Positions 7,701 through 62,154 of a stretch of 64,000 nt of DNA are shown piece by piece; the first letter of the stretch is position 1, and each line of letters starts with the position of its first letter. Origin of the DNA: Acetobacter garciniae (GTDB lineage Bacteria; Pseudomonadota; Alphaproteobacteria; Acetobacterales; Acetobacteraceae); the NCBI RefSeq assembly GCF_017377735.1, contig NZ_JAFVMH010000003.1:248001-312000 (forward strand), given 5' to 3'. The notes under the pieces were generated by a model. The model ran no database searches and had not been told where the DNA came from. It saw nothing but the letters and a program-made list of their open reading frames with translations. Position numbers and translations under genes: made by a program.

Positions 7701-8062
7701 GTGTCCCCCGAACGGGCTTGGAATATGGCTGATATTTGAAGCTGTTTTCCATTAATGCGACATGGTGCGCTTTTTGAAAACGGTAGCGGGTTTTAATGGC
7801 TGTTTCAAAAGTCAGGCGGCGCAGGGCTGGCGAGGGATTTTTGGCCCCAAAAGGCGGACTTGAAGCCCCTATGCGGGGTACCGGGGCAAGAAGCCAATGC
7901 ATTCAGGCTAGAAAAGATCCGCGCAGACCGACCCGGCTGGCTTTCGAAACAGTTTCTTGATGCTGTTTCCTGTTCCGCCCTGTCGGATGGCGGCAGGTGC
8001 CGGCCAGTTTGTCGGCACCGCCTTGCCGTTGTTTTACTTTCGGGGTGGCCCGCCGGGCCTGT
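7701..8062. other. Gap of about 360 bases between convergent genes
   Basis: It lies between the histone-like terminator and the asparaginase stop. No gene-like frame is seen; several short A/T-rich inverted segments (for example GGGATTTTTGGCCCC) are present but none is a clear terminator. Confidence 0.4.
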
Positions 8063-54791: not shown

Positions 54792-55409
54792 CTAAATGCG
54801 TTTTCGGTTTCTTCTGTCTACGAAAGTAATGGGAGAAACCCATTCTATTTCTCTACTGAAAATAGGAGCAGCATTATAGCTTGATAGTATAAATTCCCCT
54901 GAGTTTCTTCCCTGTTGAATTTGCTTTACATATGCTTCGCCGGTTCGAAGGTAAGCAACGCATTCCATAAATAGGCAATCTTCGGGTCTCATGCGTTTTT
55001 CAGAATCAAAAAAAACGATATCGCCGTCCCAATAGGCAGGAAACATGCTGTCGCCCTTCACAATGAGAGCTGTTGTCCCGTCTTCAGCCCAAATTGGCGC
55101 ATCTGCGCTGTCGATGACACATCCATCATCAGGCGGTATCACTCTTTCACCTGCTCCGACATAACCAAATACCGGGACGAATTTTGATGGTATTTTCCCG
55201 TTTTCTGCAAGCGGGTTCGGGATTCCGGCAAAATCTGATATTTTGAGGATGGTCCTGGCACTTAAAGTGGTGGTGGCCGTGCCATTGAGAAGACGCGTAA
55301 GCGTTGACGGTGCGACTTTAGATTGTCGCGCCAAGTTGGTCGCGTCCAAGCCAGTCTTTTCCATCGCAGTTTTGATAAATTCTACCGTCTTCTTCTGAGT
55401 ATCATCCAT
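54792..55409 (-). CDS. CI-like phage repressor with S24 peptidase domain
   Basis: 205 residues from the ATG at 55409 (55418 also possible); no Shine-Dalgarno, as in leaderless cI mRNAs. Helix-turn-helix at residues 22-45 (ATNLARQSKVAPSTLTRLLNG). Self-cleavage site Ala86-Gly87 in GYVGAGERV; catalytic Ser121 in KGDSMFPAYWDGD and Lys162 in GEAYVKQIQQ. It should hold the prophage silent and fall apart under RecA activation. It lies between two sets of matching operators and back to back with the Cro-like gene. Confidence 0.93.
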   Translation of the reverse strand: MDDTQKKTVEFIKTAMEKTGLDATNLARQSKVAPSTLTRLLNGTATTTLSARTILKISDFAGIPNPLAENGKIPSKFVPVFGYVGAGERVIPPDDGCVIDSADAPIWAEDGTTALIVKGDSMFPAYWDGDIVFFDSEKRMRPEDCLFMECVAYLRTGEAYVKQIQQGRNSGEFILSSYNAAPIFSREIEWVSPITFVDRRNRKRI

Positions 55410-55496: not shown

Positions 55497-55703
55497 ATGC
55501 ATGACCTGATGACCCCAAGGCAGATTGAAGAGATGGCAAGGCGGAACGGCCTGTCGATGCAACAGGTGTGTCAGACAGCTGGCATAGCTTTCTCGACATT
55601 TACGCGCTGGAGGCAACAGAAAACGGAGCCTCGAATCGGTATATATAGCCGCCTTGTCAGTGCTGCATCTGCGCCTAAAAGCATGGACCCGTTGGTATCA
55701 TGA
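55497..55703 (+). CDS. Cro-like regulator
   Basis: 68 residues from 55497. Short helix-turn-helix protein: RQIEEMARRNGLSMQQVCQTAGIAFSTFTRWR (quoted in part: GLSMQQVCQTAGIAFSTFTR). First rightward gene after the operators, so it is the Cro counterpart. Its stop overlaps the next start by four bases. Confidence 0.8.
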   Translation: MHDLMTPRQIEEMARRNGLSMQQVCQTAGIAFSTFTRWRQQKTEPRIGIYSRLVSAASAPKSMDPLVS

Positions 55704-55765
55704 CAATCTCTCATGACCCCCACCATGCCGCCGGTCCTGCGGCGTGTCAGCCGGATGTGGTTCGG
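55700..55765 (+). repeat. Duplicated 22-codon segment, copy 1
   Basis: 66 bases starting at the ATG. Copy 2 is at 56323-56388. Of the nine differing codons four are synonymous, and the last seven codons before the end (TGT CAG CCG GAT GTG GTT CGG) are the same. This pattern suggests that the segment is, or was, translated. Confidence 0.75.
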
Positions 55766-56326
55766 GCGGTGATGGTTGGATGCGCTACGGCGTTGACGAT
55801 CGGGCTGGCCAATCTGTGGATGCGCGAACGGGAGTACGAGTTAGAAGTTTCGCGGATTGCCTTGTCTTACGCAGTCGCTATCAATGAGTGTGTTGAGAAG
55901 GATAATCGGGAAGATAGTGGCGAAAATTTTGAGAATCTTCGCACCCTGACAAAGATAGTGGGCCGTAGCCTGCGCCAAAATCCGCGACGCAGGCTGTGGC
56001 TTTCAGCCTGCTATTTTCGCAGAACGTTTTCTGATTACTTCAGGCGATGCCTTGGGGATTTTTTTCTTTGTCGGCACGCGTGCGCCATCCACGGCCTGGG
56101 CAATCTCGGAGATAAGATCAAGCGCCTGCTCCTTGGTGTCGGCACCGGCGCAGAACGCGTTGTAGAGCCGCGCAATCAATCCTTCGCGCGTGATCTGATC
56201 TTCAAGTTTTTGAAGAGACATACAGGTTCATCCTTTGTGAGTCGTGACAGATCAACAATGGATGAAGCAGGCGGCAGTGGCAACGCTGCCGCCTGCACGG
56301 ACACCATGCAGGGGGGCAGCCTATGA
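55700..56326 (+). CDS. Rightward phage frame overlapping an opposite-strand gene
   Basis: 208 codons, opening with ATGA overlap to Cro and closing with ATGA overlap to the next frame. Residues 1-22 (MTISHDPHHAAGPAACQPDV...) reappear at 56323; residues 23-95 contain a possible membrane segment (MVGCATALTIGLANLW) and look natural. From residue 95 on, the frame lies antisense to the 56003-56221 gene and looks unnatural until a last 20-residue part that again resembles the end of the next frame. Either a real gene interrupted by an insertion or a split gene kept open by chance. Confidence 0.35.
   Translation: MTISHDPHHAAGPAACQPDVVRAVMVGCATALTIGLANLWMREREYELEVSRIALSYAVAINECVEKDNREDSGENFENLRTLTKIVGRSLRQNPRRRLWLSACYFRRTFSDYFRRCLGDFFLCRHACAIHGLGNLGDKIKRLLLGVGTGAERVVEPRNQSFARDLIFKFLKRHTGSSFVSRDRSTMDEAGGSGNAAACTDTMQGGSL
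55989..56011. terminator. Hairpin at the end of the opposite-strand gene
   Basis: Perfect 8-base stem GCAGGCTG / CAGCCTGC, seven-base loop, overlapping the TGA at 56003. Followed by TATTTT on the plus strand, so it may stop rightward transcription too. Confidence 0.5.
56003..56221 (-). CDS. Small phage protein on the opposite strand of the right operon
   Basis: 72 residues with a good AAAGGATG before the ATG at 56221. Natural-looking: EDQITREGLIARLYNAF, DTKEQALDLISEIAQAV, then a Lys-rich tail. Not recognised. It lies inside the rightward operon yet is read against it, in the middle of the first copy of the duplicated module. Confidence 0.65.
   Translation of the reverse strand: MSLQKLEDQITREGLIARLYNAFCAGADTKEQALDLISEIAQAVDGARVPTKKKIPKASPEVIRKRSAKIAG
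56270..56326 (+). repeat. Conserved hairpin-plus-start module, copy 1
   Basis: Hairpin GGCGGCAG / CTGCCGCC with loop TGGCAACG, then ATGCAGGGGGGCAGCCTATGA. Copy 2 at 57271 has a different stem but the same TGGCAAC loop core and the same ATGCAGGG...ATGA end. Confidence 0.6.
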
Positions 56327-56388
56327 CGGTCTCTCATCGCCCCTACCATGTCGCCGGGCCGACGGCATGTCAGCCGGATGTGGTTCGG
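56323..56388 (+). repeat. Duplicated 22-codon segment, copy 2
   Basis: Begins ATGACGGTCTCTCATCGC and ends GATGTGGTTCGG. The frame stays open to 57330, but all of it beyond about 56395 is antisense to a convincing gene, so only this short N-terminal part is likely to derive from a rightward gene. Confidence 0.7.
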
Positions 56389-56394
56389 GTGTTC

Positions 56395-57228
56395 TCAGGC
56401 ATTCTCACGGGGAATTACGTCTGCAAGGAAAAACCGGGACATGTCGTCGATGCCGGCTTCGTGGTCGGCAATCCATACCTGTTGGATTCGCTCGGCCTTG
56501 AAGCGCTGGCGTTCGGTCTTTCCTTCCATCATCCCGTCGACAAACAGCAGCGTCCAGTTGCGGTGGTCACCATTGCTTTCTTCAGAATATCCTATGACCT
56601 CCGGCTTGACGGTGACCCGTTTGAAGGTGGGGGCACGGAACTGGTACTCGAGTATGACGGGCGGCAGATCAACAGTGTGCAGGATCGCTGTCTTTCGCTC
56701 GAACGCGACTGTCTGCGGGGCGGAGAGCAGGACGGACATGAGGTCGGACACGCCTTCTCCCGTATTGGCTATGGCGCATTCCAGTATTCGGTCGGCGCGG
56801 AAGTTACGCTTTGCCTTCCGCAACTCGCAAAATGCCTCCAGGTTATAAGGCACGACTTCCCCGTCTGGCGTTGCCGCCGTGGAAAAAGCCATTACGTCGA
56901 TAATGCGGGAAGTCACGTCTTCTTTGGCATCCGCATAAGCTATGACCAGGCGGCAGAACATCTCGGACCTGCCGCCGGCTGCCAATGTCAGCGCATCGCC
57001 GTATGCGCCGGCGGTGTAGCGGCCCAGCCGCATGCCATTGCCGTAGTCAATCCGCTGGGGCCGCGGGGCAACAGCCTGTTTTCTGCTGCCCGCCACGGTG
57101 ACTTTGACGTCGTGGTCTTTCTCAAAAAGGGCGGAAAATACGGCGTAGAGGATCATCCCTACCCACGAAATGGCCGCCACGCCGATCAGGACGATAATGG
57201 CGACGACGATCGTATAAAGCATTCTCAA
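56395..57228 (-). CDS. Membrane-anchored protein with two tandem WYL-like halves
   Basis: 277 residues. Residues 3-38 form one or two membrane segments (LYTIVVAIIVLIGVAAISWV). The cytoplasmic part has two similar halves: residues 95-150, LVIAYADAKEDVTSRIIDVM ... CELRKAKRNFRADRI, and residues 205-265, VIGYSEESNGDHRNW ... ERQRFKAERIQQVW. Each ends in a basic-aromatic R.FRADRI / RFKAERI phrase as WYL domains do. WYL domains sense nucleic acids or nucleotides, usually in cytoplasmic regulators, so a membrane form is unusual. Start at 57228 with GAGA; read against the rightward operon. Confidence 0.65.
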   Translation of the reverse strand: MRMLYTIVVAIIVLIGVAAISWVGMILYAVFSALFEKDHDVKVTVAGSRKQAVAPRPQRIDYGNGMRLGRYTAGAYGDALTLAAGGRSEMFCRLVIAYADAKEDVTSRIIDVMAFSTAATPDGEVVPYNLEAFCELRKAKRNFRADRILECAIANTGEGVSDLMSVLLSAPQTVAFERKTAILHTVDLPPVILEYQFRAPTFKRVTVKPEVIGYSEESNGDHRNWTLLFVDGMMEGKTERQRFKAERIQQVWIADHEAGIDDMSRFFLADVIPRENA

Positions 57229-57270
57229 ATTCTCACGATGGTTAGGTCTAGCAACCCCATCGTGAGGGCC

Positions 57271-57330
57271 ACGGGCCGGTCTGGCAACACTCCGGCCCGT
57301 GTTGCATCCATGCAGGGAGCACGCCCATGA
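57271..57330 (+). repeat. Conserved hairpin-plus-start module, copy 2
   Basis: Stem ACGGGCCGG / CCGGCCCGT, loop TCTGGCAACACT, then ATGCAGGGAGCACGCCCATGA, ending at the start of the CII-like gene. Matches copy 1 at 56270. Confidence 0.6.
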
Positions 57331-57824
57331 TATCCCCCTTTTCGGCGGCCTTTGTGCCTGCCCTTAAAACTGCGACCAAGCGGGCTGTGGCCCATGTGGG
57401 CGGTATAGATGCTGCGGCCGTTGTCAGCCGGGTCGGGCGCACGCAGTTTTCCGACTATTCCAACCGCCAGCGTGATGCGGTGATTCCGCTGGACGTGGCG
57501 CTGGATCTGGACCATTGCGCGGAACACCCGTTCATTCTGCACGCCATGGCGCATGCGCTGGGTTTTCTGATGCTGCCTCTGCATGTCGGCCCGGGCGATT
57601 TCGGGCAGGACATGAGCGAATATGCCCAGGCATCGGGCGATATCCTGGCTACCGCCGTGCGGATTCTGGAAGACGGCGTGGTCGACCTGGATGAGGCGAA
57701 CGAGATCGCCCCCAAGCTGACACGCGCCAAGCAGCTGCTTGAGCGTGCGTTGGCCCATGTGCATTCCGTGCAGGTCCAGAACAGGCCGCGCGTTGTTACC
57801 GGCCGGGACGCCGCCAATGGCTGA
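57327..57824 (+). CDS. Phage CII-family regulator
   Basis: 165 residues; GCAGGGAGC upstream of the ATG at 57327. Matches the phage regulatory protein CII family: TATKRAVAHVGGIDAAAVVSRVGRTQFSDYSN (quoted in part: GGIDAAAVVSRVGRTQFSDY), then VIPLDVALDLDHC. A second helical domain is at 95-150. In the lambda-like layout it would activate repressor and integrase promoters. Follows the Cro-like gene after the unusual region 55700-57330. Confidence 0.8.
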   Translation: MISPFSAAFVPALKTATKRAVAHVGGIDAAAVVSRVGRTQFSDYSNRQRDAVIPLDVALDLDHCAEHPFILHAMAHALGFLMLPLHVGPGDFGQDMSEYAQASGDILATAVRILEDGVVDLDEANEIAPKLTRAKQLLERALAHVHSVQVQNRPRVVTGRDAANG

Positions 57825-58056
57825 CGATCTTATGACATTGGAACAGGTGTTTTCAGAACTGAATACACAGGTTGCAAAGGCGGGCGGCAACAATGCTTTT
57901 GCCCGCCGACACGGTCGGAACAAGTCCACCATATCGAACTGGGCGAACTGCAATAGGGAGGTCAGTGACGCCTGTCTGGATGCCCTAGGGCTGGAACGGG
58001 TTGAAATGTTCCGCCGTAAGCAGCCAACCGCAACAGGAGGTGCCCGGAATGGCTAG
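57817..58056 (+). CDS. Small helix-turn-helix phage protein
   Basis: 79 residues from 57817, overlapping the CII-like stop. Helix-turn-helix with NNAFARRHGRNKSTISNWANCNREVSDACLDALG (quoted in part: AFARRHGRNKSTISNWANCN), a YdaS/Cro-type pattern. Role in this operon unknown. Confidence 0.7.
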   Translation: MADDLMTLEQVFSELNTQVAKAGGNNAFARRHGRNKSTISNWANCNREVSDACLDALGLERVEMFRRKQPTATGGARNG

Positions 58057-59281
58057 TGGTGTGCTGCGCCCGAGTGTTGCTGAATTCGACCACACTGCGG
58101 TGACCCCGTTTAAGATGCTGCGCTCCATGCCCGCGGAAATGCGGGGGGTTGTGGTCAACCTGCGCGATGCGCTGAAGGAACTGCGGGGTACGGTTTTTCG
58201 TGCGGGGCAGATGGTCCTGACGGATGAACAGGTTGCCGTGCAGGCGTGGCTGCGGGCCGATATTCTGGCCAGTACGCTGCCCGCCATCATCCAGGCAGGC
58301 TTCATGGCGCGGGATGATGAGGGGGCACTGTTCAGCCCACAGCTTTATGCCGCGCAACTGCGGCGTGAGGAGCGGCAGGAACGCGCCGCCGCAGCCCAGG
58401 CCTACTGGGAGAGCGTTCAGGACGGTGCAGCGCTGCCCCCAGGTATGACGCGCAAGCAGCATACCGCGCAGGCCAATGGCGGCCGTGGCGGCCGACCGCG
58501 CAAGGGCGAAACGGCAGAGCAGGCCTATGAACGCCGCCTGCGCGAACAGGCAGCCGGGCAAAGCCAGCGGGAAATGCGTTTGCTGGGCACGATTGCGGGT
58601 GGCCGCGCAGAAAACCGAAACCGAAACGAGAAAACCAATCCGGTTTCGGTTTCTGTCAATTCCGGGTTTTCCGGTTCCGCAGAAGAAGAGAGAGAATATA
58701 TTAACCTAAACCAAAATACCTATCTTGGTTCTTCCTCTTCTTCTGCCCAAACCGGAAACCCGGAAAGTGGAAAACCCGAACCTGACCAAGCGCTGGTCAA
58801 CAGCGTAGCCCGTGCCGTTCTGGATGCGGCCGGTATGGGGCAGGAACAGGCCATCCATGCGCTTCAGGCAGTTCCGCATTGGCTGAGTGCCGGAGCGGAC
58901 GAGGCGCTGATTGTCTCGGCCATTGGCAGCCACATGCAGAAAATGGCCGCCAACGGTCAGAAACCCCGGCATTTTGGTGTTTTCAAGGCCCCGGTTGCAC
59001 GCGCTATAGCAGCGGCCCGCGCTACGCAGGCTGTTGCGTCCGCAGGATCGGCACCGCCAGTTGCCGTGGCAATGACGGAAACCGAAAAACTCGCTCATGA
59101 TGCCTGGACCCGCGCCGCGCCGATATTCGCGCGGATGATGGGCGAAAAGGGCTGCCTGAGCACAGTGCAACGGGAATGGCCTGCCGTGGCGGTAGAGCAC
59201 GGGTTACCCCCATGCGCTCCCCGCCGGGACGCTTACCTGGAGTTTTATCAAACCCACGCTGAAACCGGAGAGGCTGCATGA
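58049..59281 (+). CDS. Phage replication-type protein
   Basis: 410 residues, strong AGGAGGTG before the ATG at 58049. The N-terminal domain (1-120, VLTDEQVAVQAWLRADIL and a Phe/Leu-rich core) resembles DUF1376-type replication proteins. A basic AT-hook-like NGGRGGRPRKGETAEQAYERR lies at about 150, then an Asn/Ser-rich linker with a Ser run (LGSSSSSAQ), then a helical C-terminal domain. The A/T-rich linker may hold the replication origin, as in lambda O. Role is inferred from place and layout. Confidence 0.6.
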   Translation: MASGVLRPSVAEFDHTAVTPFKMLRSMPAEMRGVVVNLRDALKELRGTVFRAGQMVLTDEQVAVQAWLRADILASTLPAIIQAGFMARDDEGALFSPQLYAAQLRREERQERAAAAQAYWESVQDGAALPPGMTRKQHTAQANGGRGGRPRKGETAEQAYERRLREQAAGQSQREMRLLGTIAGGRAENRNRNEKTNPVSVSVNSGFSGSAEEEREYINLNQNTYLGSSSSSAQTGNPESGKPEPDQALVNSVARAVLDAAGMGQEQAIHALQAVPHWLSAGADEALIVSAIGSHMQKMAANGQKPRHFGVFKAPVARAIAAARATQAVASAGSAPPVAVAMTETEKLAHDAWTRAAPIFARMMGEKGCLSTVQREWPAVAVEHGLPPCAPRRDAYLEFYQTHAETGEAA

Positions 59282-61278: not shown

Positions 61279-62154
61279 ATGGTTAGCGGAGATCGTGCAA
61301 GATCGCCCGCGCCAGAGGCCAAAAAGGCCGCGCCTGTTACGGCTGATGATCTGCTGTTGCGGACGTGGCTGCACAATCGCAGCGAGAACACCCGCCGCGC
61401 CTACGAACGCGATGTGCGTGACCTGCTGGCGTATGTTGGCAGACCGCTGGTCGAGATCGGTCTGGCAGACCTGCAGGGATGGTTCGACAGCATGGCGGGC
61501 GCGTCTGACGCCACGCGGCGGCGCAAGCTTTCCGCTGCAAAGTCGCTGCTCGCCTACGCGGCGGGGACCGGCGCTCTCACACAGAATGCCGGCGCGGCCT
61601 TTCGCCTGGAGCGCGGGCGCGACACGCTGAATGAGCGCATTCTCTCTCGCGAGCAGGTTCTTGCCATGATCGAGGGCGAGGGCGAGCCGCGCCGGAAAGC
61701 GCTGCTGGACGTGCTCTACCGCATGGGGCTGCGCATTTCAGAGGCCTGCGCGCTCCGCTGGCGGGACGTTACGCGTCGCCAGCAGGGCGGCGTTGCCTCC
61801 GTGTTCGGCAAGGGCAACAAGACGCGGGCCGTCCAGGTGCCCGCCAAACTGTTCAAGCAGCTCGTGGCGCTGCGGGTTGAAAACGGGCCGGACGCGCCCG
61901 TGGTCCCCGGCCACGATGGCCGCCCGCTTTCGCATGATGCGGCCCATCGCATCGTCAAGCGGGCGGCGCGGCGTGCCGGATTGTCAGGGGCGGTTTCCGC
62001 GCACTGGCTCCGGCACGCCCATGCATCGCACGCGCTGGACAACAACGCGCCAGTGCATGTGGTCCAGGCCACGCTTGGGCATGCATCGCTTGCAACCACG
62101 ACACGATACAGCCACGTCCGCGAAGGCGATGGCTCCGCCAACTATCTGGACTGA
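61279..62154 (+). CDS. XerC/D-like tyrosine recombinase, second in the prophage
   Basis: 291 residues, AGGAAA before the ATG at 61279. N-terminal SAM-like domain SENTRRAYERDVRDLLAYVG; catalytic Arg in YRMGLRISEACALRW, Lys in GKGNKTRAVQVP, HWLRHAHASHAL, GHASLATTTRYSHV with the Tyr. Lacks the arm-binding domain of the integrase at 47575, so it is of the Xer or resolvase type. It may resolve phage multimers, flip a DNA segment, or act on the repeats before it. Confidence 0.9.
   Translation: MVSGDRARSPAPEAKKAAPVTADDLLLRTWLHNRSENTRRAYERDVRDLLAYVGRPLVEIGLADLQGWFDSMAGASDATRRRKLSAAKSLLAYAAGTGALTQNAGAAFRLERGRDTLNERILSREQVLAMIEGEGEPRRKALLDVLYRMGLRISEACALRWRDVTRRQQGGVASVFGKGNKTRAVQVPAKLFKQLVALRVENGPDAPVVPGHDGRPLSHDAAHRIVKRAARRAGLSGAVSAHWLRHAHASHALDNNAPVHVVQATLGHASLATTTRYSHVREGDGSANYLD

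What the first reader, a model, noticed from the sequence alone, without database searches (positions are those of the whole stretch)
55700..57330. Duplicated coding module in the right operon with an opposite-strand gene inside each copy
The right operon reads through four ATGA overlaps (55700, 56323, 57327 and the Cro stop). Two frames in this chain share a 22-codon N-terminus with mostly conserved or synonymous codons, and a C-terminal end that also matches (hairpin with TGGCAAC loop, then ATGCAGGG...ATGA). In between lies, in each copy, a natural-looking gene on the other strand (56003-56221 and 56395-57228). This suggests an acceptor gene or site that was duplicated and that takes up reverse-oriented gene cassettes: a possible defined insertion slot for accessory genes in this phage group. 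Alternatively the two modules are tandem copies of an intergenic element of the reverse genes.
Basis: partly seen in the sequence, partly recalled or inferred. Interest (0 to 1): 0.75.

Follow-up and report, generated by a model that had tools for sequence, protein, structure and literature searches.

The report
Inverted gene cassettes with ribosome track
In prophages of acetic acid bacteria, swappable backward-facing genes sit inside the early lytic operon, and the strand opposite each one is mostly kept free of stop codons, apparently so that ribosomes can pass through to the next operon gene.

Summary
The duplicated module is real. A 67-bp head (55700, 56323; 85% identical) and a two-hairpin tail (56218-56300, 57222-57304) bracket two reverse genes between cro and cII. 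Heads recur in 25 of 30 loci (window included) with different reverse genes between the ends, so the cassette-slot idea holds. The larger finding: from the first head to cII the operon strand is bridged by chained ORFs (54 of 74 joints ATGA or TGATG) in 25 of 25 head-bearing loci, through the antisense of the reverse genes. Synonymous recoding of those genes breaks the chain (P<=0.02 in 14 of 18 loci). Tails found by an RNA model in other loci and genera show it too (pre-set frame, p=1.6e-6). Reverse frames are protein-constrained; through-frames show no sign of it. Most likely the through-frame is a ribosome relay that lets lytic transcription and cII expression pass inverted, lysogeny-type genes. 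Expression, polarity and silencing are inferred. Closest known: noncontiguous operons, whose described antisense stretch is untranslated.

The parts
54792..55409 (-). CI-like repressor (HTH + S24 peptidase domain), left boundary
   Evidence: Pfam Peptidase_S24 8.8e-10, HTH_3 4.8e-5; PHROG 4 repressor 9.2e-21
55497..55703 (+). Cro-like HTH gene; its stop overlaps the first head (ATGA at 55700)
   Evidence: weak HTH matches; position opposite CI
55700..55766 (+). head copy 1 (start codon and 22-codon N-terminus)
   Evidence: head HMM, 32 copies in 25 of 30 loci
55700..56326 (+). relay ORF A, 208 aa: forward coding part, then open antisense of revA, ends in ATGA
56003..56221 (-). reverse gene revA, 72 aa, unknown function; relatives in L013, L018, L022
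   Evidence: codon score +21; BLAST relatives; pN/pS 0.35 against L013
56218..56300 (+). tail copy 1: hairpin 1 + hairpin 2 on + RNA; promoter-like motif and leader of revA on the - strand
   Evidence: R1 75.6 bits
56267..56296 (+). hairpin 2 of tail 1, loop GGCAAC 56279-56284
56255..56283 (-). putative revA promoter: TTGCCA - 17 - CATTGT
   Evidence: TTG, CA and T invariant in 26 of 26 non-redundant tails at fixed spacing; not called by the generic promoter scan
56323..56389 (+). head copy 2
56323..57330 (+). relay ORF B, 335 aa, mostly antisense to revB, ends in ATGA at cII
   Evidence: no sign of protein constraint in the antisense part
56395..57228 (-). reverse gene revB, 277 aa (275 from ATG 57222): N-terminal helix + two WYL-like beta domains
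   Evidence: codon score +58; 49% identical to L023; model mean pLDDT 81.5; PADLOC WYL-type models 7.6e-11 and 2.1e-6
57222..57304 (+). tail copy 2
   Evidence: R1 66.7 bits
57271..57300 (+). hairpin 2 of tail 2, loop GGCAAC 57283-57288
57259..57287 (-). putative revB promoter: TTGCCA - 17 - CACGAT
   Evidence: not called
57327..57824 (+). CII-like activator, start codon overlaps the stop of relay ORF B
   Evidence: PHROG 101 2.1e-20, Pfam Phage_CP76 5.9e-6

Best explanation
This is an array of inverted gene cassettes between cro and cII of a temperate phage early (rightward) operon. A full cassette has a head (start codon and N-terminal codons on the operon strand), sometimes a forward gene body, a reverse gene, and a tail (promoter-like motif and leader of the reverse gene on one strand; two RNA hairpins on the other). 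On the operon strand a frame runs without a stop through the antisense of the reverse gene, out through the tail, and ends in an ATGA (or TGATG or similar overlap) that starts the next unit or cII. Shown by sequence: the ends, the mosaic of different cargo, the open chain, selection on openness, no sign of protein constraint on the antisense part of the through-frame. Inferred: (1) in the lysogen the reverse genes are read from their own promoters, as lysogeny or exclusion functions; (2) on induction the rightward transcript crosses them head-on and shuts them down; (3) ribosomes handed on from cro through the relay frames keep that transcript covered, so that Rho-dependent polarity does not cut it in the otherwise untranslated antisense stretches, and deliver re-initiating ribosomes to cII.
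For: 25 of 25 head-bearing loci have a relay from the first head to cII, 461-3925 nt, with at most 1 untranslated nt; 54 of 74 joints are -4 (ATGA) or -1 (TGATG) (joints counted by eye). Synonymous recoding of reverse genes: P<=0.02 in 14 of 18 loci tested. TTA/CTA/TCA (antisense stops in the face-to-face phase): 51 of 688 Leu+Ser codons in 34 reverse genes against 87 of 552 in non-array phiAP1 genes, while other A-ending codons are equal (23.8% vs 23.5%). Reverse genes of 99 aa or more: 13 of 21 with the face-to-face antisense frame open, against 23 of 150 control genes (2 of 54 on the minus strand). Second set, tails found by R1 outside the first set: pre-set frame 1, 12 of 23 fully open, median coverage 100%, p=1.6e-6; frames 0 and 2: 1 of 10 and 1 of 16. 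pN/pS 0.19-0.66 in the reverse frame, 0.91-2.36 in the through-frame, 12 pairs. Promoter-like columns invariant in 26 of 26 tails. Rho is present in the own genome. Two annotated phages of induced lysogens carry it: phiAP1 and phiKM1, where one relay stop is the start of PhiKM1_150.
Against: No RNA, ribosome or protein data. Four of 18 loci (L015, L018, L022, L062) are not unusual under recoding (P 0.05-0.39) and 7 head loci were not tested that way. Against the wider control set the codon depletion is smaller (7.4% in array genes, 10.1% in 150 control genes, which however use fewer A-ending codons, 15.8% against 23.8%). In GC-richer genera antisense frames are often open anyway, and most single genes of the second set are not significant. 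The -10 boxes are poor and the generic scan finds no reverse promoter. The conserved hairpins on the + RNA are not explained by the relay. A frame antisense to a constrained gene tends to show a high pN/pS for that reason alone, so cannot exclude weak constraint. Lysogenic expression of the reverse genes is assumed. The recoding null used phiAP1 codon usage for all loci. Loci are related, so counts are not independent.
Confidence: 0.6

Rival explanations
1. Dual coding: the through-frames make functional proteins, so head, middle and tail are one protein gene overlapping a reverse gene.
For: Conserved N-terminal peptide in 32 heads and shared C-terminal ends; head + frame pN/pS 0.75 against 1.01 and 1.41 in shifted frames and 0.90 on the minus strand. 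In phage Fc02 both strands of such a pair make proteins with exclusion activity (PMC9936078, passages).
Against: In the antisense part the through-frame shows pN/pS 0.91-2.36 and 22-48% identity where the reverse protein is 39-80% identical; codon scores of many pass-through ORFs are low or negative, though window A and B score +18 and +20; relay ORF lengths vary from 17 to 478 aa.
Confidence: 0.12
2. The tail is mainly an RNA antitermination element (put- or nut-like) of the rightward transcript, repeated after each cassette; open frames are secondary.
For: Tandem hairpins on + RNA in the folded tails; hairpin 2 covaries (score 0.692 vs 0.240 shuffled, 0/500; cells paired 93.6 vs 69.6%), though two of the five measures are weaker (78/500 and 23/500); with symmetric scoring G.U pairs exceed A.C 33 to 8 in hairpin 2, pointing to + strand RNA; R1 matches also appear on the opposite strand a few kb away in several genomes, like left/right pairs. 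putRNA has two long stem-loops (PMC9378689, passages).
Against: Does not predict stop-free frames; tails lie behind cassettes; the loop can be explained by the -35 motif; hairpin 1 polarity is weak (28 vs 15); no relevant Rfam match.
Confidence: 0.2
3. Ordinary long antisense ORFs of GC-rich genes plus shared intergenic ends; no function of the through-frame.
For: Face-to-face antisense frames are open in 23 of 150 control genes; several GC-rich cassettes are individually unremarkable.
Against: as above; in phiAP1-type codon usage the depletion is confined to the three codons that make antisense stops.
Confidence: 0.05

Closest known systems
Noncontiguous operon (S. aureus menE-menC-MW1733-ytkD; phage 80alpha tha/ith)
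   Same: Gene or genes in opposite direction inside an operon with their own promoter; in 80alpha it ties a prophage function to the lysis-lysogeny state (passages of PMC7154746, and PMC11087260).
   Different: [quoted passage not shown] here that stretch is kept open and joined by overlapping starts. Here the cassettes are modular and recur with standard ends. Transcripts were not measured here.
Pseudomonas phage Fc02 olg1/olg2 versus gene 10
   Same: A lysogeny-expressed exclusion gene lies antisense to gene 10, the gene after ner in the early lytic operon (PMC9936078, passages).
   Different: A single locus; both Olg1 and ORF10 reported active in exclusion; no repeated ends or cassettes in the passages seen.
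HK022 put RNA / lambdoid nut sites
   Same: Stem-loops in early phage transcripts; putRNA has two.
   Different: Tails carry a reverse promoter-like motif in the loop, lie at cassette ends and have variable stems; antitermination not tested. A likeness to P22 boxB is recalled and comes from no call.
Prophage morons / lambda pRE
   Same: Accessory genes with own promoter in a prophage; leftward promoter in front of cII (both recalled).
   Different: Embedded antisense inside open operon frames.

Membership tests
Noncontiguous operon | gene(s) in opposite direction between genes of one operon | tested here: met
   Reverse genes with positive codon score and pN/pS 0.19-0.66 between cro and cII
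Noncontiguous operon | flanking genes lie on one transcript that crosses the embedded gene | not testable with these tools
   Inferred only from the chain of overlapping ORFs
Noncontiguous operon | embedded gene has its own promoter | tested here: inconclusive
   TTG-N20-CANNNT invariant in 26 of 26 tails, but generic scan negative
Noncontiguous operon | antisense stretch of the operon mRNA untranslated (as described for the S. aureus example; perhaps not part of the definition) | tested here: not met
   Open frames joined by overlaps across it in 25 of 25 loci; translation itself not measured
put-type RNA antiterminator | tandem stem-loops in the nascent early transcript | tested here: met
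   Predicted only:
put-type RNA antiterminator | suppresses termination in cis | not testable with these tools
   needs a reporter
Integron gene cassettes | integron integrase acting on attC | tested here: inconclusive
   Window has a tyrosine recombinase (61279-62154) matching XerC/XerD models; its integron-integrase score is 80 bits, cut-off 265; no att sites tested
WYL-domain proteins (revB) | WYL domain match | tested here: inconclusive
   Pfam WYL 16.7 bits, cut-off 21.8, for revB; relatives L016 23.4 and phiAP1 46.0 pass; top Foldseek hits are WYL regulators but E>=6e-3 and TM about 0.2 or less

The most novel reading that the evidence does not exclude
A reading frame can be selected only as a ribosome track: phages install exchangeable inverted genes in a working operon by keeping a stop-free, overlap-relayed frame on the operon strand, with a bifunctional connector whose one strand is a promoter for the inverted gene and whose other strand is a structured RNA of the lytic transcript.
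Probability: 0.5. Interest if true: 0.85.

Novelty: new variant of a known kind. Interest (0 to 1): 0.72.

Why it matters
Long antisense ORFs are usually dismissed as artefacts or argued over as hidden genes. Here is a third option that can be tested directly: frames kept open for passage, not product. It would explain how temperate phages carry lysogeny genes backward inside lytic operons without polarity, offers a natural set of dozens of cassettes in which to separate openness from protein selection, and marks a place where accessory (possibly defence or exclusion) genes of phages of acetic acid bacteria can be found by their ends. phiAP1 with its cured host strain makes it testable.

Tried and rejected
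Nucleotide search with the 81-base head region: 11 of 397 family genomes at E<=0.001, ten of them besides the own genome with short weak matches (best 1.4e-4); a tblastn of the array proteins found nothing in those ten loci. No match of the 81 bases in phages, none of the 5.5-kb region in plasmids. The cII protein was the useful bait. Rfam at E<=5 gave seven matches, none in the tails and none reaching its gathering score. The generic promoter scan is negative in the tails. I looked for copies of the reverse genes outside arrays as an openness control: DUF4145 type in 3 of 49 and revB type in 5 of 49 genus genomes, all hits at array loci, so that control was not available. Opposite-strand tail hits: the one I opened (L051 3127-3211) has hairpins and an ATGA but no clear embedded gene. 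phiAX1 and phiKX1 (first 50 kb each) gave no R1 match at E<=1. Papers were seen as passages only (PMC11087260, PMC7154746, PMC9378689, PMC9936078, PMC8566455, PMC9379143); all others as search listings. That I found no report of the relay rests on eight searches of an open-access library and is no proof of absence.

Full report
Observation. The 67-bp repeat, the two forward ORFs, the two reverse ORFs and the hairpin ends are at the stated places. The repeat is far above chance (copy 2 at E 2.0e-15 in the own genome). Left of it lie a CI-like repressor and a Cro-like gene, right of it a CII-like activator.

Relatives. The head DNA alone finds little. The CII protein finds 11 viral contigs, 5 Acetobacter genome contigs, 17 of 49 genus genomes with the own one counted, and the annotated phage phiAP1, one of the mitomycin-induced phages of PMC8566455 (abstract start and passages). 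That the genus is Acetobacter is inferred from equal contig lengths (51440, 68589, 201902, 63840, 237727). Oriented on cII, 37 sequences were reduced to 30 by leaving out 7 with identical DNA around cII; some of the 30 are still close relatives. Iterated HMMs find 32 heads in 25 of 30 loci (window included) and 39 tails (E<1e-3). The five without a head are L057-L060 and L068 (0.007).

Cargo. Between the same ends lie different reverse genes, in different orders: membrane WYL-type proteins (window, L014, L016, L020, L023, L025, phiAP1, L055), a 99-aa protein (L013, L017, L024, L028, L055), DUF4145-type proteins (L016, L020, L021, L024, L028, L056; Pfam run on L020 and L024 only), revA-type proteins (window, L013, L018, L022) and several small ones, some cassettes also holding a forward gene. 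PADLOC places revB's domain nearest to WYL parts of defence-linked proteins. The revB model has an N-terminal helix and two beta domains; fold matches are WYL regulators but weak, in the viral library small WYL-type phage proteins among others, none at E<=0.001. In 49 genus genomes these two families were found only at array loci (E<=1e-5).

The relay. In 25 of 25 head-bearing loci a chain of + ORFs covers every base from the first head to cII (1 nt missing in L065); 54 of 74 joints are -4 (ATGA) or -1 (TGATG), the rest overlaps of 7 to 37 nt, one joint of 0 and one gap of 1 (counted by eye). The 22- and 28-nt overlaps at cII in L056, L063-L066 probably mean that cII starts 18-24 nt further on. 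L020 is the clearest case: one 478-aa frame crosses two reverse genes of 171 and 247 aa.

Codons. In the face-to-face phase only TTA, CTA and TCA make antisense stops. In 34 reverse genes (41 listed, 7 near-duplicates dropped, a few close pairs kept) they are 51 of 688 Leu+Ser codons, against 87 of 552 in non-array phiAP1 genes; other A-ending codons do not differ. In the subset where that phase has the fewest stops it is 11 of 546, but that subset was chosen by its stops and is partly circular. Controls, 150 genes picked by codon score from 15 loci: 518 of 5119 (10.1%), with 15.8% A-ending elsewhere, so these genes are less A-rich to begin with; 23 of 150 open in the face-to-face phase, against 13 of 21 array genes of at least 99 aa.

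Second set. A covariance model of the tail finds it in 22 of 49 genus genomes and 47 of 397 family genomes, 19 of 102 genera (the weakest hits are near the threshold, some short). Of 33 loci outside the first set listed, 31 were given; 5 had no convincing reverse gene and 1 was a duplicate, leaving 25, of which 23 have frame 1 open in the tail. Frame 1 is the relay frame of the window, so it was fixed by the first set. 12 of 23 are fully open and the combined p is 1.6e-6; frames 0 and 2 give 0.10 and 1.0. Most of the 23 are not significant one by one. In 21 of the 32 loci printed with frames the frame-1 stop is an ATGA or a stop followed by an overlapping ATG (counted by eye). L132 shows the same layout in another prophage. 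phiKM1 of Komagataeibacter has two tails; the relay across its WYL membrane gene ends at the start of PhiKM1_150.

What is selected. For 12 pairs of homologous reverse genes the reverse frame has pN/pS 0.19-0.66, the face-to-face through-frame 0.91-2.36. The through-frame is kept open with no sign of selection on its protein, with the caveat that a frame opposite a constrained gene is pushed to high values. The head is different: its + frame has pN/pS 0.75 (shifted 1.01 and 1.41, minus 0.90).

The tail. On the minus strand, 26 of 26 non-redundant tails share TTG, then at a fixed distance CANNNT, i.e. a -35/-10 pair with a 17-nt spacer, and one other invariant column in the region. On the + strand hairpin 2 covaries strongly; G.U excess (33 vs 8 A.C, symmetric scoring) points to a + strand RNA, weaker for hairpin 1 (28 vs 15); the + strand folds more stably in 22 of 26 (counted). 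Hairpin 1 overlaps what looks like the reverse gene's ribosome-binding site (by eye), so read-through leftward RNA could hide it while RNA from the own promoter could not; this is inference.

Mechanism and standing. I take the arrays as noncontiguous operons with exchangeable inverted cassettes and a bridge that can be translated. The regulatory half (lysogeny-on, lytic-off) is by analogy with 80alpha tha/ith and Fc02. The bridge half is what I have not seen described; the described noncontiguous operon has an untranslated antisense stretch. The polarity argument rests on general knowledge of Rho and the presence of Rho. The hairpins of the lytic RNA remain unexplained; a put-like role is the main rival or addition.

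Noticed in passing
window 61279-62154: A tyrosine recombinase (XerC/XerD-like, below the NCBIfam cut-offs of all models it matched) downstream in the rightward direction; phiAP1 (PhiAP1_290) and phiKM1 (PhiKM1_290) have an 'integrase' at a like place. It could act on cassettes or be unrelated.
   Followed up: partly
G405 C5 137926-138010 (L051 3127-3211), G254 C19, G337 C3, G323 C24, G242 C113, G397 C1, G423 C1: Tail-model matches on the opposite strand about 2-6 kb from others, probably on the leftward-operon side.
   Followed up: partly
head, e.g. window 55751-55765: Heads hold a small inverted repeat CCGRA-N5-TYCGG with a few paired changes (seen in the head alignment).
   Followed up: no
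window 58645-58780: Imperfect 52-nt inverted repeat (73%) inside ORF 58049-59281, where most of the weak Rfam matches fall.
   Followed up: no
L148 7431-7940: PhiKM1_140 is annotated from an internal ATG; its frame can start at 7940 at the tail, adding a hydrophobic N-terminus.
   Followed up: yes
window 55989-56011: A terminator-like hairpin with T-run on the + strand at the 3' end of revA, inside relay ORF A; translation would be expected to override it.
   Followed up: no
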